Below are positions 519 through 11,234 of a stretch of 11,234 bases of DNA, one piece after another. Within the stretch, counting starts at the first letter, position 1, and each line of letters opens with the position of its first letter. The stretch is from an uncultured Ruminococcus sp. (GTDB taxonomy: Bacteria; Bacillota; Clostridia; Oscillospirales; Ruminococcaceae), in contig CAMCOJ010000039.1 in assembly GCA_945876405.1 (NCBI GenBank), forward strand, positions 1 through 11,234. The letters run 5' to 3'. The translations under genes were made by a program, and so were the position numbers. The notes under the pieces are model-generated. The model saw nothing but the letters and a program-made list of their open reading frames with translations, had not been told where the DNA came from and made no database searches.

Positions 519-1743
519 CTCGAAAAAACGATTCTTGAAGCAAGAAATGAAATCGGTGAAGCAATAGCTGAAGAATATCTGGATAATGCTTTAAAAAAAA
601 TCATCAGAAAATAAGTTAACTGTTGCCGACACTGAATCAGGAAGTATTACTGTTCAGAGGATTCATTCTGATGCCTTATTCCTTAAGCCTAAAGAAAGAA
701 TATGTTCAATAGGCTTAACCATGATTGAAACAAAATTGTATTCTAAGATTAAGCTATAGAAATGCAGTGGATACATTAAACCTTGTATACCATAAAACCG
801 ATGAAAAAGCGATAAGCTCGCATACTCTATCGTCCGACGTAGCTGAGTTGCGTTCACCAGACAAAGCATTCCCGGAACAACTTGCTGAAATTGAGCAGGC
901 AATAATAGAAATAAATGAAAATCGTGAGGAAACAGTTAATTTCAAAAGCAATGAAATACAACTGAAATCACGTGATAACTGTGTTTACATAGCCATTGAT
1001 GACATCGGCGTAAAGAGGCAGAAGGATATTCGGAAGTCAGATGATTATAAGAAAGAAAGCAAATATGTAGAAAATACTGTAGCTCATATTCAGAACGGGT
1101 CAAAAACTTATTCTCTTACAGCTTTTGGAATGAGAAATCTTTTCAAATCAGCAATTGCATTTCTGCTCGCCAATGATATTTTCAGCAAAGAAATAGTATT
1201 CTTTACTGATGAAGTTAAAAACATAAAAACTGCATAACAGAAATGTTCGCCTTTCATAAATACGAAATCATTCTTGACTGGTATCATCTGAAAAAAAGAT
1301 GTCAGTAATACCTGAGTATGTCTATAAAGTCCAGAGATAAAAATAAGCAAGACAAAAACCGTTGTCTTGAAAAATTACTTAGATACTTATGGGTTGGAGA
1401 TGTAACGAGTGCAATTTCATTTCTTGAAAATATACCAGAAGATATGATAAAAGGTAAGAAATGGATTGTAGCTTTGACTGCATATATAGACAGAAAGAGA
1501 TATGGTATTGTGTGTTACGCAGTAAGAACAAAGTTAAATTACAGAAATTCAAGCAATTCTGTAGAGAGAGCTAATGACATCATTGTAGCTAAACGTCAAA
1601 AGCACAATGGAATGTCATGGACTCCAGGTGGCAGTTCTTCTCTTGCTGCGATTGAAATGATATACCAGAATCATCAGGAGAACGATTGGTTTTATAACCA
1701 TACCATCTCTATGTGCGTTCCTGCATCAAACAAATGCGTTTAG
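519..1743 (+). pseudogene. Degenerate DDE transposase, three frame changes and one internal stop
   Basis: The protein similarity runs through different frames: frame 3 from 519 to about 597, frame 1 to about 756, frame 2 to 1237, then frame 1 to the stop at 1743. The first frame change sits at an A8 run (593-600). The last, near 1234, fits loss of one A. In the final frame a TAA at 1306-1308 interrupts a conserved stretch. Segments fit a DDE transposase: an IDD motif (codons 998-1003), a DWYHL motif with Asp at 1276-1278, and a C-terminal NSVERAN motif with Glu at 1564-1566 followed by RQKHNGMSW. The order of these blocks resembles large clostridial transposases of the ISKra4/ISLre2 (UPF0236) kind, but I cannot fix the family. 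No clear terminal inverted repeats or target duplication were found. It is the only non-minus gene here and is surely inactive. Confidence 0.8.
1687..1702. repeat. 16-base direct repeat, right copy
   Basis: This matches 357-372 exactly. It falls within the last codons of the transposase pseudogene, so at least this copy is coding sequence of the element rather than a target-site duplication. Confidence 0.55.
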
Positions 1744-1958: not shown

Positions 1959-2573
1959 TCAGATTTTCTTATTCAGATAGGCCAGTGAAAGTGCCATGTT
2001 TTCATATTGAACGGGGATATTATCAGGTACGTCAAGAGTACATGGAGCAAAGCACCATATAGCTTTTATACCATTTTTTATAAAACGGTCGCATACTTCC
2101 TGTGCACTCTGAGCCGGAACTGCTATTACTCCTATTCGTATGTTGTTTTCTTTGCAGAAATCGTCAAGCATATCCATAGAGTAAACAGGTTTTCCCAGAT
2201 TGCTTTTCTCAGGTGTATCTACAGCTTTGTCAAAAGCGGCCATTATATCGAGACCGTAATCCCTGAATCCGCCGTAGTCCAGAAGTGCTCTTCCGAGTTT
2301 TCCTGCTCCTACGATGACTACATTGCTGTTTTCATCATGAGCAAGGAATTTTTCCAGAACTGCGATAAGTTCAGAAACATTATATCCGGTTTTAGGACGG
2401 CCTGCACCGCTTACGGCACCAAGATCTTTTCGAACCTGAACTTCACCCAGACCAAGTTCTTTGGCAAGAGTTGTAGCTGAAATATTTTCAGTTTTCAGGG
2501 CTTTATCTTTAAGGTATTTCAGATATGTCGGGATACGCCCCATTGTTGCCCGTGATATTTCAATCTGTTTCAT
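1959..2573 (-). CDS. rex: Redox-sensing transcriptional repressor Rex
   Basis: This 204-residue protein has the normal Rex length and layout. Residues 1-75 form a winged-helix DNA-binding domain, with VQVRKDL (46-51 region) in the recognition helix and the family's GRPKTGY turn. Residues 85-200 form a Rossmann NAD(H)-binding domain with VGAGKLGRAL at 88-97 and the family signatures AAFD (112-115) and VPAQSAQ (152-158). Rex proteins are dimers that leave DNA when NADH/NAD rises and so derepress fermentative genes. ATG 2573 is preceded by a weak AGG-type site. The gene starts 30 bases after the transporter stop codon, so the two are very likely co-transcribed and end at the hairpin at 1855-1887. 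Placement beside fumarate reduction and NADH-linked genes suggests that Rex controls this cluster. That is inference; no perfect Rex operator is visible. Confidence 0.95.
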   Translation of the reverse strand: MKQIEISRATMGRIPTYLKYLKDKALKTENISATTLAKELGLGEVQVRKDLGAVSGAGRPKTGYNVSELIAVLEKFLAHDENSNVVIVGAGKLGRALLDYGGFRDYGLDIMAAFDKAVDTPEKSNLGKPVYSMDMLDDFCKENNIRIGVIAVPAQSAQEVCDRFIKNGIKAIWCFAPCTLDVPDNIPVQYENMALSLAYLNKKI

Positions 2574-2603: not shown

Positions 2604-3848
2604 TTAGCTGAACAGCATTATTATGAACTGTGAAACAAGTACAACCGCAATAAGAGCAACCGGATAAGCAGCTGCATATGCAGAAGCTACATCGTCAGTC
2701 TTTGCAACGTTGATAAGTGTTCCGAGTGCAGGTGTTGATGTCATACCTCCTGTGATACCACCGAGGTTGTTGAAAAGTGGAAGCTTGATAACGTACTTTG
2801 CGATGATGAAACCTACAATCATAGGTACGGTTGTCATAAGGATACCATAGAGGAAGTATTCAGGCTGGAAGAACTTGATGAATGAAGCACCGCCAGGGAT
2901 ACCGGCACCAATAAGGAATGCCATAAGACCGAATTCACGGAAGATTTCGAGCATTCTCTTTTCAGGCTTCATGTTAAGAGAGCCGAAGTGGCCAAAGTGA
3001 GCAACTACCAGTGAAGCGAGGAGACATCCGCCCGTTGTACCAAGTGAAAATGTTGAAGAACCCATAGGAATCTTGATTCCGCCGATGAACATACCGAGTA
3101 CTACAGCAATGGCAAATGCTGCAAGTCCGAAACCGTCGATGTCAAAAAGCTTTTTGCCTTCGTTTTTCTTTGCACCTGTGTCAACAGAGGCAATCTTCTT
3201 ACGTTCCTCATCAAGATTTGCCTTGAGCATCTTAGGAACAATCTGTACGAAGAGAACAACACCTACAACACCGAAGAGGTAAGCGATACCGTGACCAACT
3301 GTTACGATATCCTCATACTTAGCGATGAGTTCAGCATCATTGGCATATACAGAGCTGATAGTGTCCTTTGCAGCTGAGAAAGCAGGTGTTGAAGTAAGCG
3401 CACCTGAGAGAAGACCAACTGCCATTGCTGTATCGCAGCCAAATACCTTGATGCAGAATACAGTTGTAAGACCGCCAAGGATGATGATTATAAGTGAAAG
3501 AAGTGCGTAGGACGTAAAGTTCTTCTTAAGATTTGAGAAGAAGTTCGGACCGGCAATGAATCCAACCGATGTTACGAACAGAATGAGTCCGAGATTTTCT
3601 ATAATCTTGAAGCTGTTTTTCGCAAGAGCAGCTTCAGCGCCGAATTTGGTTGTAACAAGGTCATTGCCATCAACTGAGAATACAAGAGCACCGAAAAGAA
3701 GTGCTATGATGAAAACGCCTGCTGTACCGAGTGATACACCCTTGATTGTTACTCTTCCGAGAAGATATCCGAGTCCTGCCACGATGAATATTACAAACAT
3801 CAGGAAACCAATACCTGTAATGGATATTACACCATTAAATAAGTTCAT
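2604..3848 (-). CDS. AspT/SucE-like dicarboxylate transporter lacking the RCK domains
   Basis: This 414-residue integral membrane protein has about ten to twelve hydrophobic segments in two halves. Each half carries the same signature, GLLSGALTSTPAF (145-157) and GGITGGMTSTPAL (363-375), the internal duplication of the aspartate:alanine exchanger family (AspT, YidE/YbjL, Corynebacterium SucE). Known members are usually near 540-560 residues, with TrkA-C (RCK) domains in the central cytosolic loop. Here the charged linker is only about residues 205-236, so that part is absent. The start is set at ATG 3848, which has GGAGG nine bases upstream; a longer reading from 3908 would add a Cys/Phe-rich stretch without a ribosome-binding site. 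The gene follows the fumarate-reductase-like operon and precedes rex by 30 bases. Since SucE is a succinate exporter, succinate efflux is the most economical guess, but aspartate, alanine or malate exchange is also possible. Confidence 0.8.
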   Translation of the reverse strand: MNLFNGVISITGIGFLMFVIFIVAGLGYLLGRVTIKGVSLGTAGVFIIALLFGALVFSVDGNDLVTTKFGAEAALAKNSFKIIENLGLILFVTSVGFIAGPNFFSNLKKNFTSYALLSLIIIILGGLTTVFCIKVFGCDTAMAVGLLSGALTSTPAFSAAKDTISSVYANDAELIAKYEDIVTVGHGIAYLFGVVGVVLFVQIVPKMLKANLDEERKKIASVDTGAKKNEGKKLFDIDGFGLAAFAIAVVLGMFIGGIKIPMGSSTFSLGTTGGCLLASLVVAHFGHFGSLNMKPEKRMLEIFREFGLMAFLIGAGIPGGASFIKFFQPEYFLYGILMTTVPMIVGFIIAKYVIKLPLFNNLGGITGGMTSTPALGTLINVAKTDDVASAYAAAYPVALIAVVLVSQFIIMLFS

Positions 3849-3857
3849 TTTAACAAA

Positions 3858-3862
3858 CCTCC
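3858..3862 (-). promoter_or_regulatory. Ribosome-binding site fixing the transporter start
   Basis: GGAGG on the minus strand lies nine bases before ATG 3848. It is the only good site near either candidate start and excludes the upstream start at 3908. Confidence 0.8.
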
Positions 3863-3927
3863 AAAAGTTACATAAAAAACATTCCGATGAAAACATAAAT
3901 TTTTTCATGTGTTAATCGGACTGCCTT

Positions 3928-4033: not shown

Positions 4034-5641
4034 TTACATTCCGCTCTTGTTTCCGCGGTAGTCAGGGAGTAACTTAGGTGATACTGTATCTGTTACGATA
4101 CCTGCAGCTTCACGTTCAGCATCAAACTTAGCGATGTGTTCAAGGCTGAGCTTGCCAACTGTTACGTTCTTTGCTGTAGCTGCTGCGTTGATACCAGCGT
4201 TACGGCCGAATACGATAATATCGAGGAGTGAGTTACCCATAAGACGGTTCTTACCGTGGATACCACCAACAGCTTCGCCGGCAACGAAGAGGTTTTCAAC
4301 ATTTGTTGTCATACCGTTAACGTTGATGTCGAGACCACCGTTCTGGTAGTGGAGTGTAGGGTAGATAAGGATTGGTTCCTTGCGGATATCAATACCGTAT
4401 GAAGCGAACATACGCATCATAGCAGGGATACGCTTTTCAATTGTGCCTTCACCGCCGATGATTTCAATCATTGGAGTGTCAAGCCATACAGCCTTGCCGC
4501 TGCCTGTGTCCACACCGTTGTTTCTGTCTGAACATTCACGAATGATTGAAGCAGCAGAAACGTCACGTGTTTCCAGTGGGTGCATGAATACTTCACCATT
4601 TACGTTTACGAGCTTGGCACCGAGTGAACGAACCTTTTCAGTAACGAGAGCACCGAAAATCTGCTGTGGGTAAGCAGCACCTGTCGGATGATACTGAAGT
4701 GTTTCAGGATAAAGGAGCTTAGCGCCTACTCTGTAGCCGAGTACGAGACCGTCAGCTGTAGCACCGTAGTGGTTTGATGTAGGGAAGCCCTGGTAGTGCA
4801 TACGTCCTGCACCGCCTGTAGCGATGATAACTGTCTTTGCACGTGCAACCATGAGTTCCTTTGTTTCCATGTTCATGAGAACTGCACCTGCAGCTCTGCC
4901 GTTTTCATCAAGGATGAGTTCAATAGCAGATGTGAAGTCAACAACTTCAATACCGAGGTTGATTACTTCATCACGGAGTGTACGCATGATTTCTGCACCT
5001 GAGTAGTCCTTTGCAGCATGCATTCTCTTGCGTGAAGTACCGCCGCCGTGTGTTGTTACCATACGGCCTGTTTCGTCCTTGTCGAATTCAACGCCGAGCT
5101 CATTGAGCCACTTGATAGCGCCAGGAGCATCGCATACTAGCTTTGCAAGGAGTTCCTTCTTTGCTGCGAAGTGACCGCCGCCGAAAGCATCGATGTAGTG
5201 CTGTGCAGGTGAGTCGTTTTCCTTGTCAGCTGCCTGGATACCACCTTCAGCCATCATTGTGTTTGCATCGCCCATACGGAGCTTTGTAACGATCATTGTC
5301 TTAGCACCGGCATTGTGAGCTTCGATAGCAGCAGATGTACCTGCGCCGCCGCCGCCGATAACGAGAACGTCAACGTCATACTTAACATCTTCAAGGTTTA
5401 TGTCAGAAGCCTTGATACGGCTCTTTGCCTGAAGGATTTCAACGAGTTCGTGAGGAACTACTTCACCCTTGTTAGGACCAATCTTGAGCTCTGAAAATTC
5501 GCTCTTCTTGTAGTCAGGATGGTAAGCTGCAAGGAGATCATCCTTTTCCTGAGCTGTCATACGTCTTGGTTCAAGAGCAGTATTTGCAGCTCTGTTAGCT
5601 TCAACCTTCTTTAATGATTCCTGAAATTCTGCTGAATACAT
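4034..5641 (-). CDS. Fumarate reductase-type flavoprotein subunit (FrdA/SdhA family)
   Basis: This 535-residue FAD protein probably reduces fumarate to succinate in the cytosol. An N-terminal extension of about 88 residues precedes the FAD Rossmann motif GGGGAG (96-101). The active-site set of the family is present: HPTG with His318, TE at 334-335, TRD with Arg359, HYQNGG with His431 and NRLMGNSLLD with Arg466. The position of the histidine that binds FAD covalently in E. coli FrdA is Asn127 (ANTMMAEGG), so FAD should be non-covalent, as in NadB and soluble fumarate reductases. Only about 65 residues follow the NSLLD motif, so the usual C-terminal helical domain is missing. ATG 5641 has AAGGAGG ten bases upstream, overlapping the stop of the Fe-S subunit gene 14 bases away. 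No signal peptide or membrane anchor is seen. Other enoates, or L-aspartate oxidase activity, are less likely given the catalytic residues and neighbours. Confidence 0.85.
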   Translation of the reverse strand: MYSAEFQESLKKVEANRAANTALEPRRMTAQEKDDLLAAYHPDYKKSEFSELKIGPNKGEVVPHELVEILQAKSRIKASDINLEDVKYDVDVLVIGGGGAGTSAAIEAHNAGAKTMIVTKLRMGDANTMMAEGGIQAADKENDSPAQHYIDAFGGGHFAAKKELLAKLVCDAPGAIKWLNELGVEFDKDETGRMVTTHGGGTSRKRMHAAKDYSGAEIMRTLRDEVINLGIEVVDFTSAIELILDENGRAAGAVLMNMETKELMVARAKTVIIATGGAGRMHYQGFPTSNHYGATADGLVLGYRVGAKLLYPETLQYHPTGAAYPQQIFGALVTEKVRSLGAKLVNVNGEVFMHPLETRDVSAASIIRECSDRNNGVDTGSGKAVWLDTPMIEIIGGEGTIEKRIPAMMRMFASYGIDIRKEPILIYPTLHYQNGGLDINVNGMTTNVENLFVAGEAVGGIHGKNRLMGNSLLDIIVFGRNAGINAAATAKNVTVGKLSLEHIAKFDAEREAAGIVTDTVSPKLLPDYRGNKSGM

Positions 5642-5655
5642 TGCTGATATCCTCC

Positions 5656-6330
5656 TTACTTTTCAATCTCTCTGTTGTTGTAGAGTTCTTTCATTTCTTC
5701 AATCGGCTTGCCCATAAGAGCTTCAAGAAGCTGTGTGAAGTCACCGTTTTCGATTTCCTTAACTCTGTTTTCAAGGTGTTCACTTGCAGGAGCAAGGTAC
5801 TTACCGTTGATTCTTCTTGCAAGCATTGCAACCTGCGGATGTGAGATACCGGCAGGGCAGCGTGATGAACATACGCCGCACATTACGCAGTCAAATGATT
5901 CTTCAGCACAGAGTTCGAATTCGCCTCTCTGAGCGTAAGCGATGTACTGCATAACGTTAAGAGACTGAGTGCAGCTCTTTGTACAAGCGTTACAGCCAAC
6001 ACAAGCGTAGATTTCAGGGTAGAGCTGCATCATAACCTGTTCGGTTGTCTTAACTTCGTTGATATCGTAAACCTGCTTTACGAGCGGGAAGAAAGGAAGT
6101 GTAGCAACGTACATACCTTCTTCAACCTTTGTCTGGCATGCCAGACATGTTCTGAGCTGTGTATCTCCCTTGATACGGTAGATAGTAGCACATGCACCGC
6201 AGAAACCGTTACGGCATCCGCAGCCACGAATGAGCTGGTAGCCGGCATATTCCATAGCACGCATAATTGTGAGATGATCCGGAACAGAATACTGTTTGCC
6301 GAACAGGTAAATGTTTACCATGTTTTCCAT
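5656..6330 (-). CDS. Fumarate reductase-type iron-sulfur subunit (FrdB/SdhB/TfrB-like)
   Basis: This 224-residue electron-transfer protein is predicted to feed electrons to the flavoprotein encoded just downstream. Residues 1-75 form a plant-type [2Fe-2S] ferredoxin domain with Cys39, Cys44, Cys47 and Cys62 as likely ligands (Cys37 and Cys65 are nearby). Residues 105-165 form an alpha-helical ferredoxin domain with two full Cx2Cx2Cx3C sets, Cys110/113/116/120 and Cys148/151/154/158. Two [4Fe-4S] clusters are therefore expected, rather than the [4Fe-4S] plus [3Fe-4S] of classical FrdB. It lacks the HdrB-like CCG domains found at the C-terminus of methanogen thiol:fumarate reductase TfrB. ATG 6330 has AGGAG ten bases upstream. 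The gene begins 35 bases after the FlxA-like gene and ends 14 bases before the flavoprotein. No membrane-anchor gene (FrdC/D) lies in the operon, so the enzyme should be soluble. Confidence 0.85.
   Translation of the reverse strand: MENMVNIYLFGKQYSVPDHLTIMRAMEYAGYQLIRGCGCRNGFCGACATIYRIKGDTQLRTCLACQTKVEEGMYVATLPFFPLVKQVYDINEVKTTEQVMMQLYPEIYACVGCNACTKSCTQSLNVMQYIAYAQRGEFELCAEESFDCVMCGVCSSRCPAGISHPQVAMLARRINGKYLAPASEHLENRVKEIENGDFTQLLEALMGKPIEEMKELYNNREIEK
6130..6147. repeat. 18-base perfect palindrome inside the Fe-S subunit gene
   Basis: TGTCTGGCATGCCAGACA is fully self-complementary. It lies in the codons for CLACQT (residues 62-67), around the last [2Fe-2S] cysteine. It is more likely a coding coincidence than a regulator site. 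Confidence 0.6.
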
Positions 6331-6365
6331 AATATATATACTCCTCTCGGTTACTTTTAAAAATA

Positions 6366-7193
6366 TTAATATTCGTCAGGAAGTTCGTCAACCTGATCGC
6401 ATCTGAATACAGGACCGTCCTTGCAGACATACTTTGGACCGATGTTGCAGCGGCCGCATTTACCAACACCGCACTTCATGCGAAGTTCCATTGTTGTGTA
6501 AACCTGTGTCTTGTCAAATCCGAGTTCCTGGAGACCGGCAAGTGTAAACTTGATCATAATCGGAGGTCCGCAGAGGATTGCAGTTTTGTTTGTATCAAAA
6601 CCGAGTTCCTTAACATAGTTCGGTACGAAACCAACGTGACCTGTCCATTCAGGCTGTTCACGGTCGATTGTAAGATGTACGTCAATACCGTCATCCTTTA
6701 CCCATTCATCGATGATTTCCTTGTAGTCAACAAGGTCTTCCATACTTCTTGAACCGTAAACGATGTCGATCTTTCCGTAACGGTCACGGTAGTGACGGCA
6801 GTAGTTGATTACTGAACGGAGCGGTGCAAGACCGATACCACCGGCAATAAAGAGCATATCCTTGCCGGCAAATTCAGTGTCAACCGGGAATGCATTTCCG
6901 TATGGTCCGCGGATTGTAATCTGCTGGCCTACTTCCATAGCGTGGAGCCACTGTGTAAGGCAGCCGCACTTCTTGATCGAGAATTCCATGAATTCTGTAT
7001 TTGTAGGTGATGATGTAATTGAGAACATAGCTTCACCAACGCCAGGAATTGAGAGCATAGCACACTGACCAGGCATATGGTCGAAAGCCTTCTTTCCGTC
7101 AGGAGTAACAACACGGAATGTCTTTACATCAGGTGTGTCGATTCTGATATCAGTAACAACACCTATTACAGGAATATGAGGATCATTCATCAT
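6366..7193 (-). CDS. flxA: FlxA-like FAD/NAD(P)-binding, [2Fe-2S] oxidoreductase subunit
   Basis: This 275-residue protein has the ferredoxin-NADP reductase fold of the HydG/AsrB/PyrK group and is the likely NADH entry site. The FAD domain spans about residues 8-108, with EAMFSITSSP (54-63) where this group binds FAD and GPYGNAFP (96-103). The NAD(P)-binding domain has IAGGIGLAPLRS (116-127), YGSR (146-149) and CGPP (208-211). The C-terminus carries a [2Fe-2S] site, Cys241-x4-Cys246-x2-Cys249-x7-Cys257. The gene begins with two adjacent ATGs (7193, 7190). The first overlaps the TAA of the preceding gene as TAATG, pointing to translational coupling. In Flx-Hdr complexes of anaerobes this subunit oxidises NADH and passes electrons through the Flx Fe-S proteins and FlxD to HdrA. 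NADH rather than NADPH preference is inferred from that family and cannot be read here. Confidence 0.85.
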   Translation of the reverse strand: MMNDPHIPVIGVVTDIRIDTPDVKTFRVVTPDGKKAFDHMPGQCAMLSIPGVGEAMFSITSSPTNTEFMEFSIKKCGCLTQWLHAMEVGQQITIRGPYGNAFPVDTEFAGKDMLFIAGGIGLAPLRSVINYCRHYRDRYGKIDIVYGSRSMEDLVDYKEIIDEWVKDDGIDVHLTIDREQPEWTGHVGFVPNYVKELGFDTNKTAILCGPPIMIKFTLAGLQELGFDKTQVYTTMELRMKCGVGKCGRCNIGPKYVCKDGPVFRCDQVDELPDEY

Positions 7194-8212
7194 TACTTGT
7201 TACCTCCTAATTTTTTCATTACCTTAACAATGTTCATATTGATAGGGCACTTAGCCAGACAGCGTCCGCATCCTACGCAGCCGAAGATTCCTTCGTTGTT
7301 TGTAGGATAGTAAACGAGTTTGTGCATGAATCTCTGACGGAAACGTTCAAGCTGTGAGTTACGGATATTACCGTGAGCCATCCTTGTGAAGTCAGAATAC
7401 ATGCATGAGTCCCAGCATCTGAAACGCTTAACTTCGTGGCCTGTGCTGAAGTCCTTGATGTCGTAGCACTGACATGTAGGACATACAAAAGTACATGTAC
7501 CGCAGCCAAGACATGCCTCTGAAAGTTCTTTCCATTCAGGAGCATTGAAGAATTCCATTGTCTTGTCAGCACCAAAGGCAGATGCATCAAGTCCTGCAAG
7601 AGGAAGTTTCTTCATAATTTCAGCTGTCTTAGCCTTCTGAGCATCAACTGCTGAGCTGTCTGTTTCTTCTGTAAGAGCGTTTAAGCTGTCGAGGAGCTGT
7701 GCACCCTTTTCAGTTTTAGCGTCAAGATAGAGAGTATCATCTGTCTTATGACATACGATATCGCCGGCAGGACTTGCAGCATCAATGCCAAAAGTTCCGC
7801 AGAAACAAGTTTCTGCAGGCTTTGTACAGGCCATTGATACGATGATGCCGTGTTCACGTCTGTTCTTGTAGAAATTATCCACAGGATCAGCAAGGAATAC
7901 TCTGTCGAGGATTTCGAAGCTCTTTACGTCACATGCACGAACGCCGAATACTACAAAATCTTCATATTCATTAACCGGTTCAACAATCTCAATGTTTTTG
8001 CCTTCAACCTTGAAGTCAACCATGTTTTCTGTCTGCGGGAAGAAGAAATCCTTTGCGCTTCTTACTGTGTTGAGAGCATCTGACATTGTCTTTGTGCCGT
8101 CGTATTTTTCAAACTTAGCACCTGCAGCTGTGTCAACAGGGATGTAGAGGCTGCTCTTTGAAGAAATCTCAGCGAAAAGCTGATTTATTTTGTCAAGTGA
8201 AATCTTACGCAT
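7193..8212 (-). CDS. flxB: FlxB-like 4Fe-4S protein (HydB/AsrA family)
   Basis: This 339-residue iron-sulfur protein is of the sulfhydrogenase beta/anaerobic sulfite reductase A type. An N-terminal domain (1-225) carries the family's FGVRACDV (89-96), a YKNRR segment near 115-119 and CFC (136-138). A C-terminal dicluster domain has Cys234/237/240/244 and Cys312/315/318/322, with additional cysteines at 247, 249, 266 and 270. It probably relays electrons between FlxA and the rest of the complex. I start it at ATG 8212, which has GAGG eight bases upstream. A GTG at 8221 would add three residues but overlaps that ribosome-binding site. With ATG 8212 it overlaps the FlxC-like gene by eight bases, and its TAA overlaps the next ATG by one base. 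Assignment to FlxB rests on family and gene order (D-C-B-A). Confidence 0.8.
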   Translation of the reverse strand: MRKISLDKINQLFAEISSKSSLYIPVDTAAGAKFEKYDGTKTMSDALNTVRSAKDFFFPQTENMVDFKVEGKNIEIVEPVNEYEDFVVFGVRACDVKSFEILDRVFLADPVDNFYKNRREHGIIVSMACTKPAETCFCGTFGIDAASPAGDIVCHKTDDTLYLDAKTEKGAQLLDSLNALTEETDSSAVDAQKAKTAEIMKKLPLAGLDASAFGADKTMEFFNAPEWKELSEACLGCGTCTFVCPTCQCYDIKDFSTGHEVKRFRCWDSCMYSDFTRMAHGNIRNSQLERFRQRFMHKLVYYPTNNEGIFGCVGCGRCLAKCPINMNIVKVMKKLGGNK

Positions 8213-9197
8213 TCTCGCCACCTCTTTCTACTGCATCACAAGGTTCGATATCTTCCGTTGTGAAGTCAACAATCGGAGCACGGCTGCCCACCTCGGCACC
8301 TGCCTGATATTCACCATAGAATTCATTCATATCCTTGATGAACTTACGGTTAAGAAGGTGGAGAGGGATGTTCTGAGGACATACTCTTGAGCATTCGCCG
8401 CAGTCTGTACATCTGCCGGCAACATGGAATGCACGGATGATGTGGAACATCTTTTCTTCGAATGAATCTGATATAGCCTTGTTTTCAACGCCTGAAGCAG
8501 GGTTGTCAAATACGCACTTTTCACATGTACATGCAGGGCAGATATTACGGCATGCGTTACATCTGATGCAGCGTGAAAGTTCATTCTGCCAGAAAGCAAA
8601 ACGTTCATCAGCTGTCATAGCTTCGAGCTTTTCCACTTCGTCAAATCTTGCACTGTCGAGAACTTCTCCCTCTTCGCCGAGGAGTTCATCATAAGCGGCA
8701 TGTTTCTTTGATTTACAGTTTGCGCATCTTTCAGCAAGTACCTCAGCTCTTTCGAGTGTGATTTTTCCGTCGTAGAGAGTATCCACAACAACCTTGCCGT
8801 TTTCTTCTGAAACTGAAGAAATACCGTTTGCGCGTTCTTTTATCTTGCTGTCATCAAGCATTCCGTTACATGGTATGCCCACAACATAAACCTTTTCACG
8901 GTCAAATTTGTGTTCAGTAAGGAGCTGATTGAAGCTGTATGTGTCACAAGGCTTAAGGAATGCCATAACCTTGCTTTCAGTCTTGTCTGCTTCTTTTCTA
9001 AGATACTTAGAGAAGTTTGCACCGCAGAAGTCGTTCCATACAAATTCGCTTTCGAGTTCTTCCTTTGAAGTGAACACTGCAGGTGTTACGTCATAATCAA
9101 ATTCGCCCTTTTTCCAGCCGATAACACGGTCAACAGTACCGTCAGCGAGTAACTGGGCAGCCTTTGCTATGAGATCTTCGCGTTTTATTTCTTGCAT
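8205..9197 (-). CDS. flxC: FlxC-like 4Fe-4S dicluster protein
   Basis: This 330-residue iron-sulfur protein has an N-terminal alpha/beta domain (about 1-150) with LKPCDTYSF (81-89) and GIPCNGML (107-114), resembling the beta-subunit fold of F420-dependent hydrogenases and formate dehydrogenases. A CxxC pair follows at Cys158/161. Two ferredoxin-type sites come next: Cys210/213/216/220 with further cysteines at 223, 225 and 228, and Cys263/266/269/273. It is expected to be an electron relay in the cytosolic Flx complex. ATG 9197 has GGAGG seven bases upstream and overlaps the MvhD/FlxD gene by 13 bases. The naming follows gene order between FlxD and FlxB; the family call (4Fe-4S dicluster, FrhB/FdhB-related) is firmer than the exact symbol. 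Confidence 0.75.
   Translation of the reverse strand: MQEIKREDLIAKAAQLLADGTVDRVIGWKKGEFDYDVTPAVFTSKEELESEFVWNDFCGANFSKYLRKEADKTESKVMAFLKPCDTYSFNQLLTEHKFDREKVYVVGIPCNGMLDDSKIKERANGISSVSEENGKVVVDTLYDGKITLERAEVLAERCANCKSKKHAAYDELLGEEGEVLDSARFDEVEKLEAMTADERFAFWQNELSRCIRCNACRNICPACTCEKCVFDNPASGVENKAISDSFEEKMFHIIRAFHVAGRCTDCGECSRVCPQNIPLHLLNRKFIKDMNEFYGEYQAGAEVGSRAPIVDFTTEDIEPCDAVERGGENA
8221..8224 (-). promoter_or_regulatory. Ribosome-binding site fixing the FlxB-like start
   Basis: GAGG on the minus strand lies eight bases before ATG 8212, inside the end of the FlxC-like gene. It favours ATG 8212 over GTG 8221. Confidence 0.65.
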
Positions 9198-9622
9198 CTC
9201 AGATCCTCCAGTCTCTTGTTTTCGCCGAGAGCTGTAATCTTCTCAACGAAATCATTCATTGTTGCAGCGAACTTTGCACCTTCAGCTGCTGATACCCATT
9301 CCACACGTGTACGTTCCTTTTCGATGCCGAGGTAATCGAGCATTGAAAAGAGAAGTGCCATACGGCGGCGTGTGTAATAGTTACCTGATGTATAGTGACA
9401 GTCTCCCGGATGACATCCGCAGAGGATAACACCGTCAGCACCGCGCTGGAAAGCACGGAGAATGAACATCGGATTAACTCTGCATGAGCATGGAACACGT
9501 ATAATCTTTACTTCTGCCGGATAGTTAAGTCTGTTGTTACCTGCAAGGTCAGCGCCTGCGTAGGAACACCAGTTACAGCAGAAAGCCACAATAAGCGGCT
9601 TGAATTCTCCGTTTACTTGCAT
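9185..9622 (-). CDS. mvhD: MvhD/FlxD-type [2Fe-2S] electron-transfer subunit
   Basis: This 145-residue protein is a typical delta subunit of methyl-viologen-reducing hydrogenase (MvhD), called FlxD in Flx-Hdr systems. It has CCNWCSYAGAD (15-25), PCSCRVNP (44-51) and GADGVILCGCHPGDCHY (61-77), the cysteine blocks that hold its [2Fe-2S] cluster. In known complexes this subunit binds HdrA directly and hands over electrons from the partner module. That agrees with its place between hdrA and the Flx genes. ATG 9622 overlaps the hdrA stop by ten bases and has GGAGG ten bases upstream. It overlaps the FlxC-like gene by 13 bases, so its expression is coupled on both sides. Confidence 0.93.
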   Translation of the reverse strand: MQVNGEFKPLIVAFCCNWCSYAGADLAGNNRLNYPAEVKIIRVPCSCRVNPMFILRAFQRGADGVILCGCHPGDCHYTSGNYYTRRRMALLFSMLDYLGIEKERTRVEWVSAAEGAKFAATMNDFVEKITALGENKRLEDLRCKK

Positions 9623-11193
9623 ATTGCGTCTACCTCCGCCATAATCTGTTTATTCATGAAGCCCTTGAGATCCATAGCGCCTGACATACATGTAACTGTA
9701 CAGCAGCCGCAGCCCTGACATACTGCTTCGTTAACAACAGCGATTCTGCGCATCTTTGTTGTTCTGTCAGGCATTCTGAATTCCTTGTCTTCGTAAGTGA
9801 TAGCGCCGTAAGGACATACGTTTCCGCATGTTGAACAGCCGTTACACATATTTTCGTCTGAGTGAGCAACACATGGGTTACCTGTGAGCTTATCCTTGGA
9901 GAGAAGTCCGATAACCTTTGAAGCAGCAGCACCAGCCTGTGATACTGTTTCAGGAATATCCTTAGGACCCTGACAAGTACCTGAGAGGAATACACCTGCT
10001 GTCGGGCTTTCTACAGGACGAAGCTTTGGATGAGCTTCTGTGAAGAAGTCGTTAGTATCCATACTTGCTGTAAGCATAGTAGCAAGCGGACGTGCAGACT
10101 TGTCAGGTTCGATAGCAGCGGCAAGAACAACGAGGTCAGCATCGATGTGAAGCTGTTTGCCGGCAATAAGGTCTGAAGCCTGAACCTTGAGCTTGTTGCC
10201 TTCAGGTGAAACCTTTCCGACCATACCCTTGATATAGTGAACACCGTATTCTTCAACAGCACGGCGATAGAATTCGTCAAATGCCTTACCAGGTGTACGA
10301 ACGTCTATGTAGAATACATAAACATCAGTATCAGGATACTTGTCACGTGTAAGCATTGCATGCTTTGCTGTGTACATACAGCAGATCTTTGAGCAGTATT
10401 CCTTGCCTTTTTCAGCACATGCTGCACATCTTGAACCTACGCACTGTACGAATACGATTGTGTGAGGATGTTCGCCGTCTGAAGGACGGAGGAGTTTACC
10501 TGCTGTAGGACCAGCTGCGTTTGTAAGTCTTTCGAATTCGAGAGATGTGATAACGTCTTTGGACTGTGAATAAGCATATTCGTCGAACTTATCCATTGAA
10601 ATAGGGTTGAAGCCTGTTGCAGCTACGATTGCGCCGTATTTTTCCTCAACGTATTCATCCTTTGCCTGGTAGTCAATAGCACCTGCTGTGCAGACCTTTG
10701 AGCAGACACCACACTTGCCTGTTTTGAGCATTGTACAGTAGTCAGCGTCAATTGTTGCTACCTTCGGAACTGCCTGGGCAAACGGAATGTAGATTGCACG
10801 GCGGTTATCCATACCGAGGTTGAATTCGTTCGGAACCTTCTTCTGAGGACATTTTTCCGTACATGCACCGCATCCTGTACAGATGTCTTCCTTAACGTAA
10901 CGTGCACGGCGCTTGATCTTAACATCAAAGTTACCTACGAAGCCCTTGATCTCTGAAACTTCACTGTATGAGAAGATTCTGATATTTTCGTGCTGGGCAA
11001 CCTCAACCATCTTTGGTGTAAGGATACATGCTGCACAGTCAAGTGTAGGGAATGTCTTGTCGAGCTGAGCCATCTTGCCGCCGATAGTAGGCTTTGTTTC
11101 AACGATATCAACAGGGAAACCTGCATCAGCAATGTCAAGAGCTGTCTGGATACCGGCAATACCGCCGCCGATAACGAGAGCACGCTTTGTAAC
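9613..11193 (-). CDS. hdrA: HdrA-type FAD/4Fe-4S electron-bifurcating subunit (5' truncated)
   Basis: The 526 genuine residues belong to HdrA, the flavin subunit of heterodisulfide reductase complexes where electron bifurcation occurs. Numbering from the first genomic codon (Val at 11191-11193), there is an FAD motif GGGIAG (9-14), CAACILTPKM with Cys53/56 near the flavin, and an inserted ferredoxin domain with Cys105/108/111/115 and Cys153/161/164/168. FVQCVGSR lies at 248-255, followed by a cysteine-rich segment and then GTCQGPKDIPETVSQAG at 405-421. A C-terminal ferredoxin domain has Cys450/453/456/460 and Cys492/495/498/502. Family members have about 650 residues, so roughly 130-150 N-terminal residues are missing beyond the contig end. 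A GTG at 11208 gives an apparent start MYKRQ, but those codons are sequencing adapter. The stop overlaps mvhD by ten bases. Confidence 0.92.
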   Translation of the reverse strand, partial: VTKRALVIGGGIAGIQTALDIADAGFPVDIVETKPTIGGKMAQLDKTFPTLDCAACILTPKMVEVAQHENIRIFSYSEVSEIKGFVGNFDVKIKRRARYVKEDICTGCGACTEKCPQKKVPNEFNLGMDNRRAIYIPFAQAVPKVATIDADYCTMLKTGKCGVCSKVCTAGAIDYQAKDEYVEEKYGAIVAATGFNPISMDKFDEYAYSQSKDVITSLEFERLTNAAGPTAGKLLRPSDGEHPHTIVFVQCVGSRCAACAEKGKEYCSKICCMYTAKHAMLTRDKYPDTDVYVFYIDVRTPGKAFDEFYRRAVEEYGVHYIKGMVGKVSPEGNKLKVQASDLIAGKQLHIDADLVVLAAAIEPDKSARPLATMLTASMDTNDFFTEAHPKLRPVESPTAGVFLSGTCQGPKDIPETVSQAGAAASKVIGLLSKDKLTGNPCVAHSDENMCNGCSTCGNVCPYGAITYEDKEFRMPDRTTKMRRIAVVNEAVCQGCGCCTVTCMSGAMDLKGFMNKQIMAEVDAICK

Positions 11194-11234
11194 CTGTCTC
11201 TTATACACATCTGACGCTGCCGACGATACTCCTT
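11194..11234. other. Illumina Nextera adapter and index (non-genomic contamination)
   Basis: Positions 11194-11212 are the Tn5 mosaic end CTGTCTCTTATACACATCT. Positions 11213-11226 are GACGCTGCCGACGA, the rest of the Nextera i5-side adapter. Positions 11227-11234 are TACTCCTT, the reverse complement of the i5 index AAGGAGTA (S507). Genomic sequence therefore stops at 11193. The adapter creates false starts MYKRQ and MCIRDR on the minus strand and a false tail LSLIHI on the plus strand, all well-known database artefacts. Confidence 0.98.

What the first reader, a model, noticed from the sequence alone, without database searches (positions are those of the whole stretch)
4034..11193. Predicted soluble electron-bifurcating NADH:fumarate/ferredoxin oxidoreductase: HdrA-FlxDCBA operon carrying FrdBA-like genes in the place of HdrBC
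Seen: seven co-directional, tightly packed genes encode an HdrA flavoprotein, MvhD/FlxD, FlxC-, FlxB- and FlxA-like subunits, then a fumarate-reductase-type Fe-S protein and flavoprotein with complete catalytic residues. There is no membrane anchor. Known: FlxABCD-HdrABC couples NADH oxidation to ferredoxin and disulfide reduction through HdrA. Inference: FrdAB is the high-potential branch instead of HdrBC, so NADH oxidation would drive fumarate to succinate while also reducing ferredoxin, conserving energy without a membrane. This would be a distinct architecture for succinate fermentation.
Basis: partly seen in the sequence, partly recalled or inferred. Interest (0 to 1): 0.88.

Follow-up and report, generated by a model that had tools for sequence, protein, structure and literature searches.

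The report
Ferredoxin-charging fumarate reductase with intact HdrBC
This gene cluster, found in many gut and rumen Clostridia, is predicted to turn fumarate into succinate in the cytoplasm with electrons from NADH while also charging ferredoxin; the two genes it seemed to lack (hdrB and hdrC) sit on another contig of the same genome, and the window's contig was very likely cut off just short of them.

Summary
The seven genes are real: 5'-truncated hdrA, flpD, flxC-, flxB- and flxA-like, frdB-like, frdA, all on the minus strand. The headline claim, FrdBA in the place of HdrBC, is wrong. The contig ends in a sequencing adapter inside hdrA. Contig C252 of the same genome carries fumC-hdrB-hdrC and the start of hdrA, also ending in an adapter. 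On the closest relative's contig the two pieces map 9 bases apart. Of 80 related loci, 57 have enough upstream DNA; all 57 read hdrB-hdrC-hdrA-flpD-flxCBA-frdBA, 55 with fumC just upstream. An equivalent 'succinate operon' with the same ferredoxin-linked proposal is in print for Pseudoclostridium thermosuccinogenes, so this is a member of a known kind. What I add: HdrB and FrdB co-occur almost perfectly in the class (39 genomes with both, 3 with one, 249 with neither); 38 HdrBs linked to FrdBA, adjacent or not, are one side of a fully supported branch; no quinone prenyltransferase over cut-off in the own genome or 16 of 17 relatives checked. Best reading (0.6): NADH electrons split at HdrA between ferredoxin and, via HdrC and HdrB, FrdB-FrdA-fumarate. 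The wiring is untested. Against: four of 39 FrdB-positive phylum genomes show neither HdrA nor HdrB.

The parts
11194..11234 (.). Nextera adapter at the contig end; not genomic sequence, cuts hdrA
   Evidence: sequence read; matching second adapter at the start of contig C252; adapter identity recalled
9613..11193 (-). hdrA, 5'-truncated (residues 139-664 of the relative's HdrA): bifurcating-type FAD protein with inserted and C-terminal ferredoxin domains
   Evidence: NF040770 HdrA2 602.6 bits, under its 1100 cut-off, which is set for a longer protein; aligns over its whole present length to methanogen HdrA 8rvv_A E 8e-156; residues
9185..9622 (-). flpD/mvhD (FlxD)
   Evidence: PF02662 FlpD E 3e-56
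8205..9197 (-). flxC-like Fe-S protein
   Evidence: Fer4 domains; best solved relatives are formate dehydrogenase beta subunits, C-terminal part
7193..8221 (-). flxB-like (HydB/AsrA family Fe-S protein)
   Evidence: NF040829 ShyB 196 bits, under cut-off; PF17179 over cut-off
6366..7193 (-). flxA-like NAD(P)H:FAD oxidoreductase subunit (HydG/AsrB family)
   Evidence: PF00175, PF00970, PF10418 over cut-off; NF006220 228 bits, under cut-off
5656..6330 (-). frdB-like protein: 2Fe-2S (Cys 39, 44, 47, 65) and two complete 4Fe-4S motifs (Cys 110-120 and 148-158), no [3Fe-4S]-type gap
   Evidence: Pfam; Cys invariant in 26 of 26 aligned sequences; ligand assignment inferred from motifs
4034..5641 (-). 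frdA: FrdA/TfrA-like flavoprotein with complete fumarate-site residues, Asn in place of the flavin-binding His, an ~85-residue N-terminal extension and no recognised C-terminal SDH domain
   Evidence: TfrA NF004900 330.9 bits, under its 718 cut-off; alignment to SdhA structures; invariant columns in 31 sequences; no PF02910 match
2604..3908 (-). AspT/YidE-family permease, possible succinate exporter (function inferred)
   Evidence: PF06826 E 6e-60; homologue within 900 b downstream of frdA on the same strand in 51 of 68 loci with room
1959..2573 (-). rex, NAD(H)-sensing repressor; next to the cluster here, but a rex lies downstream in only 8 of 61 loci with room
   Evidence: NF003994 242.7 bits, over cut-off; count

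Best explanation
The window holds seven genes of a cluster whose upstream part (fumC, hdrB, hdrC) is very likely the one on a second contig of the same genome, and together they are predicted to make a soluble Flx-HdrABC-FrdBA complex in which NADH electrons would be split at HdrA between ferredoxin and, through HdrC and HdrB, fumarate. Shown by sequence: the gene set, its order in relatives, the full cysteine sets of HdrB and FrdB, and the complete active site of FrdA. Inferred path: NADH - FlxA (FAD) - FlxB/FlxC - FlpD - HdrA (bifurcating FAD); one branch to ferredoxin; the other HdrC - HdrB (two CCG-type clusters) - FrdB (two [4Fe-4S], one [2Fe-2S]) - FrdA (FAD) - fumarate. FumC would supply fumarate from malate and the AspT-family permease would export succinate. 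Reduced ferredoxin would feed Rnf, which the genome encodes, so energy would be conserved without a quinone. I read HdrB here as an electron adaptor to FrdB, comparable to the CCG parts of SdhE and TfrB, rather than as a disulfide reductase; that step is the least certain.
For: (1) hdrB-hdrC-hdrA-flpD-flxC-flxB-flxA-frdB-frdA in order on one strand in 57 of 57 loci with at least 7.5 kb upstream (23 of the 80 were too short); fumC within 600 b of hdrB in 55 of 57. (2) A second arrangement, frdBA-hdrBCA-flpD-flxCBA, in 5 loci, and hdrC-hdrB next to frdB-frdA without the rest in 5 (L163 cut before frdA): FrdBA changes place but stays beside hdrB. (3) Class-wide co-occurrence in 291 sampled genomes: FrdB in 40, HdrB in 41, both in 39, neither in 249; the three exceptions are 62, 75 and 77% complete. 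(4) HdrB tree, 62 rows: 38 HdrBs linked to FrdBA, adjacent or at another locus, are one side of a branch, support 100/100, length 0.83, against 17 from FrdB-negative genomes and 7 extra HdrBs of FrdB-positive genomes. The 27 best phylum hits after the own one all come from FrdB-positive genomes. (5) All ten CCG cysteines invariant in 20 of 20 HdrBs. The own HdrB scores slightly higher with the fumarate reductase subunit SdhE model (153.1) than with HdrB (150.2); 9 of 11 linked HdrBs tested lean that way, 1 of 9 unlinked ones. (6) FrdA is the only full-length FAD_binding_2 match in the genome, FrdB has no [3Fe-4S]-type motif, and no UbiA-type prenyltransferase over the cut-off was found in the own genome or in 16 of 17 FrdB-positive relatives. 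(7) Own genome: rnfA, rnfC, rnfE over cut-off, an rnfG-like gene under it and an RnfD/NqrB-family hit; such a hit in 13 of 17 relatives. (8) With E0' of +33 and -320 mV and -500 mV assumed for ferredoxin, the coupled reaction releases about 33 kJ/mol. (9) In P. thermosuccinogenes, a different organism, the operon rose about fourfold under CO2 limitation and added H2 almost abolished succinate, which its authors say fits ferredoxin coupling (passages).
Against: No biochemistry or complex structure was available. FrdBA occurs without Hdr: 4 of 39 FrdB-positive phylum genomes (G067, G071, G296, G380) show neither HdrB (E 1e-20) nor HdrA (E 1e-10), and G130 has HdrA but no HdrB. Five more (G033, G039, G075, G080, G382) have FrdBA next to other partners (cytochrome b561/Fe-S, or FMN-binding and cytochrome-type genes) and only HdrBs of the unlinked kind, three by the tree, two by score alone. 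In seven genomes frdBA and hdr-flx lie at separate loci. HdrB keeps every CCG ligand, so it may still reduce a disulfide. The SdhE lean is a few bits, under both cut-offs, not corrected for kinship, tested on 11 of 38 and 9 of 24 rows, and the unlinked HdrBs on average score higher with both models in absolute bits. The own genome is 88% complete, and its contig join is inferred from a relative. No Rnf/Nqr hit in 4 of 17 relatives. The FrdB model was unusable (pLDDT 47).
Confidence: 0.6

Rival explanations
1. FrdBA is a self-standing soluble fumarate reductase fed by another donor such as ferredoxin or a flavoprotein, and Flx-HdrABC is a separate enzyme that reduces an unknown disulfide; the genes are merely co-regulated for redox balance.
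For: Four FrdB-positive genomes of 39 show no HdrA and no HdrB, three of them with pyruvate carboxylase beside frdBA; seven genomes keep frdBA and hdr-flx at separate loci; other partners in five.
Against: Near-perfect class-wide co-occurrence and a distinct HdrB branch shared by adjacent and separate loci point to a shared job. The Hdr-less FrdBAs of G071, G296, G380 and G067 nest inside the Hdr-linked clade and look derived (G067 is a long branch, so its place is unsure).
Confidence: 0.17
2. HdrB reduces a disulfide to a dithiol and FrdBA uses that dithiol as donor, a two-step thiol:fumarate route like methanogen Tfr but with a diffusible or protein-bound carrier.
For: HdrB keeps both CCG cluster motifs in 20 of 20 sequences; FrdA's best NCBIfam match is TfrA (330.9 bits, under cut-off).
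Against: FrdB is 224 aa with no CCG domain, so it has no recognised thiol-oxidising part; none of the window's cluster genes looks like a thiol carrier.
Confidence: 0.12
3. The complex runs in reverse: succinate oxidation with reduced ferredoxin drives NAD+ reduction (electron confurcation).
For: Bifurcating complexes are reversible in principle (recalled).
Against: The flavin-binding His of succinate dehydrogenases is Asn in 31 of 31 FrdAs, which from recalled SDH work disfavours succinate oxidation; fumC and an exporter-family gene adjoin the cluster.
Confidence: 0.05
4. One reading: FrdBA takes the place of HdrBC and receives electrons directly from HdrA or FlpD.
For: Only that the window itself shows no hdrBC.
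Against: hdrB and hdrC are in the same genome beside the start of an hdrA and in 57 of 57 testable loci; the window ends in an adapter.
Confidence: 0.02

Closest known systems
'Succinate operon' of Pseudoclostridium thermosuccinogenes (PMC7282089, 2020; cites the preprint 10.20944/preprints201912.0288.v1)
   Same: [quoted passage not shown] ferredoxin coupling assumed there (passages)
   Different: Thermophile, not a gut MAG; I compared gene order with the paper's text only and did not see its sequences; the preprint was not held. The HdrB branch, co-occurrence and quinone results were not in the passages I saw
FlxABCD-HdrABC of Desulfovibrio vulgaris (Ramos et al. 2015; title seen in reference lists only)
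   Same: All seven subunit types are present once C252 is counted
   Different: frdBA is part of the cluster, and HdrB belongs to another branch than the HdrBs of FrdB-negative genomes sampled here; order is hdrB-hdrC here, hdrC-hdrB in those Flx-Hdr clusters. D. vulgaris sequences were not compared
Thiol:fumarate reductase TfrAB of methanogens
   Same: FrdA is nearest to TfrA in NCBIfam; both combine fumarate reductase and CCG parts
   Different: In Tfr the CCG part is fused in TfrB; here FrdB has none and HdrB is a separate protein; FrdA is under the TfrA cut-off
8-methylmenaquinol:fumarate reductase SdhABE
   Same: HdrB scores as well with the SdhE model as with HdrB; a CCG subunit beside FrdAB
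   Different: Far under the SdhE cut-off (153 of 500); no quinone prenyltransferase found in the genome
korABCD-tfrAB-flxABCD-hdrABC clusters of tubeworm symbionts and Thioflavicoccus (PMC6315080)
   Same: Published suggestion that Flx-Hdr shuttles electrons directly to a Tfr-type fumarate reductase (passages)
   Different: Gammaproteobacteria, carbon fixation context; resembles the type D clusters seen here rather than the window

Membership tests
FlxABCD-HdrABC NADH dehydrogenase/heterodisulfide reductase | Bifurcating-type HdrA with ferredoxin domains | tested here: met
   Alignment of the whole window part to 8rvv_A and 5odc_A, E about 1e-155
FlxABCD-HdrABC NADH dehydrogenase/heterodisulfide reductase | HdrB with two CCG domains and HdrC | tested here: met
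   Both on contig C252 of the same genome: two PF02754 domains over cut-off, HdrC model 62.3 bits and HdrB model 150.2 bits, both under those models' cut-offs; in 57 of 57 testable related loci
FlxABCD-HdrABC NADH dehydrogenase/heterodisulfide reductase | FlxD/MvhD, FlxA with NAD and FAD domains, FlxB and FlxC Fe-S subunits | tested here: met
   Pfam and NCBIfam; FlxC only by domain type and position
FlxABCD-HdrABC NADH dehydrogenase/heterodisulfide reductase | NADH-dependent ferredoxin and disulfide reduction | not testable with these tools
   Needs biochemistry
P. thermosuccinogenes-type succinate operon | fumarase, Flx-Hdr genes, fumarate reductase genes, transporter, in that order | tested here: met
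   Order in relatives against the paper's text and tag ranges; sequences not compared
P. thermosuccinogenes-type succinate operon | Fumarate reduction coupled to ferredoxin reduction | not testable with these tools
   Assumed in the passages I read; no assay seen
Quinol:fumarate reductase / succinate dehydrogenase (complex II) | His that binds the flavin covalently | tested here: not met
   Asn127 aligned there, invariant in 31 FrdAs
Quinol:fumarate reductase / succinate dehydrogenase (complex II) | [3Fe-4S] cluster next to the quinone site | tested here: not met
   Two complete CxxCxxCxxxC motifs in 26 of 26 FrdBs; cluster types inferred from motifs
Quinol:fumarate reductase / succinate dehydrogenase (complex II) | Membrane anchor and a quinone pool | tested here: not met
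   No anchor in the cluster; no UbiA-type match in the own genome, 88% complete
Thiol:fumarate reductase TfrAB | TfrB with a fused CCG domain | tested here: not met
   FrdB is 224 aa, no CCG domain
Thiol:fumarate reductase TfrAB | TfrA above its curated cut-off | tested here: not met
   330.9 bits against 718
8-methylmenaquinol:fumarate reductase | SdhE above its curated cut-off | tested here: not met
   153.1 bits against 500

The most novel reading that the evidence does not exclude
In these gut Clostridia HdrB has stopped being a disulfide reductase and has become a dedicated electron adaptor that is wired to FrdB, making Flx-HdrABC-FrdBA one bifurcating machine with fumarate as its built-in high-potential acceptor; FrdBA itself is a plug-in module that other lineages connect to cytochromes or other donors.
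Probability: 0.45. Interest if true: 0.75.

Novelty: new member of a known kind. Interest (0 to 1): 0.55.

Why it matters
Succinate made in the gut and rumen is a precursor of propionate (recalled). In this genome no quinone-dependent route was found, so how it reduces fumarate is open. A soluble enzyme that charges ferredoxin while making succinate would change energy budgets and hydrogen accounting. FrdB relatives number 6,230 proteins of a set clustered at 90% identity, at E 1e-40 or better. Only 5 of the 120 rows listed carry a name, and those say '4Fe-4S' or '2Fe-2S' protein, so routine annotation may well miss fumarate reduction by these bacteria.

Tried and rejected
Rex operator upstream of fumC: the best match per locus to a recalled Rex consensus was about as good as background in 55 loci, so Rex control is not claimed. 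FrdB structure: AlphaFold model unusable, pLDDT 47, not searched. FrdA model moderate (pLDDT 73, pTM 0.79); the 50 fold matches listed are SdhA/FrdA, aspartate oxidase and flavocytochrome c relatives, nothing beyond the sequence result. FrdB in the PDB: only weak matches, in the 60 rows shown mostly polyferredoxins and photosystem Fe-S proteins, so 'FrdB-like' rests on domain order and position. Papers: a search for 'bifurcating fumarate reductase' gave none and the preprint title phrase gave only PMC7282089. Other searches (lists capped in 20, 78 and 79) brought no listing that I recognised as a second description in gut bacteria. I read passages of PMC7282089, PMC6315080 and PMC5861303 only, and listings with titles and abstract starts of the rest. 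Open frames at 725-1743 looked transposase-like to me but no Pfam family matched, so no name is given.


Full report
WHAT IS IN THE WINDOW. The window is a whole contig (C39) of a 2.54 Mb, 434-contig genome rated 88% complete. Its minus strand carries seven tightly spaced genes: a 5'-truncated hdrA, flpD, flxC-, flxB- and flxA-like genes, an frdB-like gene and frdA. An AspT-family permease and rex follow on the same strand. HdrA aligns over its whole present length with solved methanogen HdrA.

THE MISSING HDRBC. The first 41 bases of the hdrA end are a Nextera adapter (adapter identity recalled). A search of the own genome for the CCG family gave one protein, on contig C252. That contig reads fumC (partial), hdrB, hdrC, then the first 134 residues of HdrA, then the other Nextera adapter. 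On L003, the closest of the 80 relatives (FrdB 96% identical), the two contigs map to 5127 and 5137 of one stretch, inside one hdrA gene; the window part covers residues 139-664 and the C252 part 1-134, each 95% identical or more. So the contig very likely broke inside hdrA, and hdrBC were not replaced.

CONSERVATION. Of the 80, 57 have at least 7.5 kb upstream of frdB. All 57 have hdrB-hdrC-hdrA-flpD-flxC-flxB-flxA-frdB-frdA in that order on one strand, and 55 have fumC within 600 bases of hdrB. The AspT-family gene follows in 51 of 68 loci with room, rex in 8 of 61. FrdB-like genes (E 1e-30) occur in 17 of 148 sampled family genomes, 40 of 291 class genomes and 39 of 398 phylum genomes.

PARTNER SWAPPING. 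I fetched the surroundings of frdBA for the 38 other phylum hits and 2 of the class hits and named the neighbours (Pfam on one representative per neighbour cluster). Type A is the window's set: L193 in the window's order, L178 with hdrC before hdrB and an flpD that BLAST did not call. Type B (5 loci) has frdBA before hdrBCA-flpD-flxCBA. Type C (5 loci; L163 is cut before frdA) has hdrC-hdrB next to frdBA only. Type D (10 loci, all one family; two cut short of hdrB) has hdrB, hdrA, a second HdrA-like protein of about 1,050-1,100 aa and flpD before frdBA, followed by 2-oxoacid:ferredoxin oxidoreductase genes and, in 6 of 10, both succinyl-CoA synthetase genes. In other loci frdBA sits with class I fumarase and malic enzyme, with pyruvate carboxylase (3), with a cytochrome b561/Fe-S gene (3), or with FMN-binding or cytochrome-type genes (3). 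In seven of the genomes without adjacent hdr genes an hdrB-hdrC-hdrA-flx cluster lies elsewhere (flpD was not called in L197-L199 and the contig of L196 ends before flxA).

CO-OCCURRENCE AND HDRB BRANCH. In the same 291 class genomes HdrB (E 1e-30) occurs in 41 and FrdB in 40; 39 have both, 249 neither, and the three exceptions are 62, 75 and 77% complete. In the phylum sample 34 of 39 FrdB-positive genomes have some HdrB (E 1e-20), as do 122 FrdB-negative ones, and the 27 best HdrB hits after the own one are all from FrdB-positive genomes. In a tree of 62 HdrBs the 38 linked to FrdBA (13 A, 5 B, 5 C, 8 D, 7 separate-locus) form one side of a branch with support 100/100 and length 0.83; the other side holds 17 from FrdB-negative genomes and 7 further HdrBs of FrdB-positive genomes. 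I chose the FrdB-negative rows from the higher-scoring hits; the rows are not independent of species kinship; and the tree leaves out the HdrBs of G254, G366, G075 and G080 and the best one of G281, whose loci I did not fetch.

RESULTS AGAINST. Five FrdB-positive phylum genomes have no HdrB: G067, G071, G130, G296, G380. Four of these show no HdrA either (E 1e-10); G130 has HdrA. In the FrdBA tree G071, G296, G380 and G067 nest within the type A clade, so Hdr loss or lone transfer is likely, though G067 is a long branch. Five others (G033, G039, G075, G080, G382) have only the unlinked HdrB kind, three by the tree and two by score. FrdBA therefore does not need Hdr everywhere.

CATALYTIC AND CLUSTER RESIDUES. 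FrdA aligns with SdhA structures from residue 87 on. His318, Thr334/Glu335, Arg359, His431 and Arg466 fall on the dicarboxylate-site positions (roles recalled), and the flavin-binding His is Asn127; all are invariant in 31 sequences. FrdB keeps Cys 39, 44, 47, 65 and eight further Cys of two complete motifs in 26 of 26 sequences. HdrB keeps all ten CCG cysteines in 20 of 20. In NCBIfam the own HdrB scores 153.1 bits with the methylmenaquinol:fumarate reductase subunit SdhE and 150.2 with HdrB, both under cut-off. SdhE minus HdrB averages +5.9 bits for 11 of the 38 linked and -6.4 for 9 of the 24 unlinked HdrBs (Mann-Whitney p 0.003, not corrected for kinship). In absolute bits the unlinked ones on average score higher with both models, so this is a relative lean only.

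GENOME CONTEXT. The window FrdA is the only one of six FAD_binding_2 matches in the genome that spans the profile. No UbiA-type prenyltransferase was found in the own genome, with 14 of 14 controls ringing. I checked 17 of the 54 other FrdB-positive family and class genomes, picked mainly for completeness: one has UbiA matches over the cut-off, a genome rated 11% contaminated, and two have partial matches under it. rnfA, rnfE and rnfC (over cut-off) and an rnfG-like gene (under it) lie on contig C22 with an RnfD/NqrB-family hit; 13 of the 17 relatives have such a hit.

MECHANISM. The best-supported reading is NADH oxidation by FlxA, electron delivery by FlpD to HdrA, splitting at its flavin, one branch to ferredoxin and one through HdrC and HdrB to FrdB, FrdA and fumarate. 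The gene set, ligand residues and co-occurrence are shown; every electron step is inferred. With +33 mV and -320 mV from PMC5861303 (passages) and an assumed -500 mV for ferredoxin, 68.1 kJ/mol released against 34.7 kJ/mol spent leaves about 33 kJ/mol.

NOVELTY. PMC7282089 (passages) describes a 'succinate operon' with fumarate hydratase, Flx-Hdr genes, fumarate reductase genes and a possible transporter. The operon rose about fourfold under CO2 limitation, though not significantly for all subunits. [quoted passage not shown] I could not read that preprint. PMC6315080 (passages) suggests a Flx-Hdr link to a Tfr-type enzyme in symbionts. The window is a new member of that kind. The HdrB branch, the co-occurrence and the partner swapping were not in the passages I saw; whether they are in print I cannot say beyond the searches.

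Noticed in passing
window 11194-11234 and L001 1-46: Nextera adapters at contig ends give spurious translated ends (SAASDVYKRQ, CLLYTSPSPRDRQKS) on HdrA; such tails mark artificial gene ends in MAGs.
   Followed up: yes
L170, L173, L175, L177, L180, L182, L184, L185 (type D; L181 and L187 cut short): frdBA follows hdrB-hdrA, a second HdrA-like protein of about 1,050-1,100 aa, flpD and a FlxC-like protein with no Pfam match at 1e-8 (one tested), and precedes 2-oxoacid:ferredoxin oxidoreductase and often succinyl-CoA synthetase genes; the electron donor is unclear.
   Followed up: partly
L164, L167, L168 (G380, G071, G296): frdBA beside a pyruvate carboxylase gene in genomes with no HdrA or HdrB found; the donor of this FrdBA is unknown.
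   Followed up: partly
L188, L189, L191; L186, L190, L161: The same FrdBA family sits next to a cytochrome b561/Fe-S gene (first three) or FMN-binding (L161, L186) and cytochrome c7-type (L186, L190) genes, as if re-plugged to a membrane or extracellular electron source.
   Followed up: no
L203, L206, L207, L209, L211, L213-L215, L218, L221, L222: In Flx-Hdr clusters of the unlinked HdrB kind the flpD and hdrA frames are each broken into two pieces, perhaps in-frame selenocysteine codons; those clusters also run hdrC before hdrB.
   Followed up: no
window 4034-5641, N-terminal ~85 residues of FrdA: FrdA carries an N-terminal extension unmatched by SdhA structures and lacks the usual C-terminal domain match; invariant residues in it (for example His41-Pro42-Asp43) have no role known to me.
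   Followed up: no
window 725-1743 +: Two adjacent open frames, possibly remains of a mobile element, with no Pfam match.
   Followed up: partly
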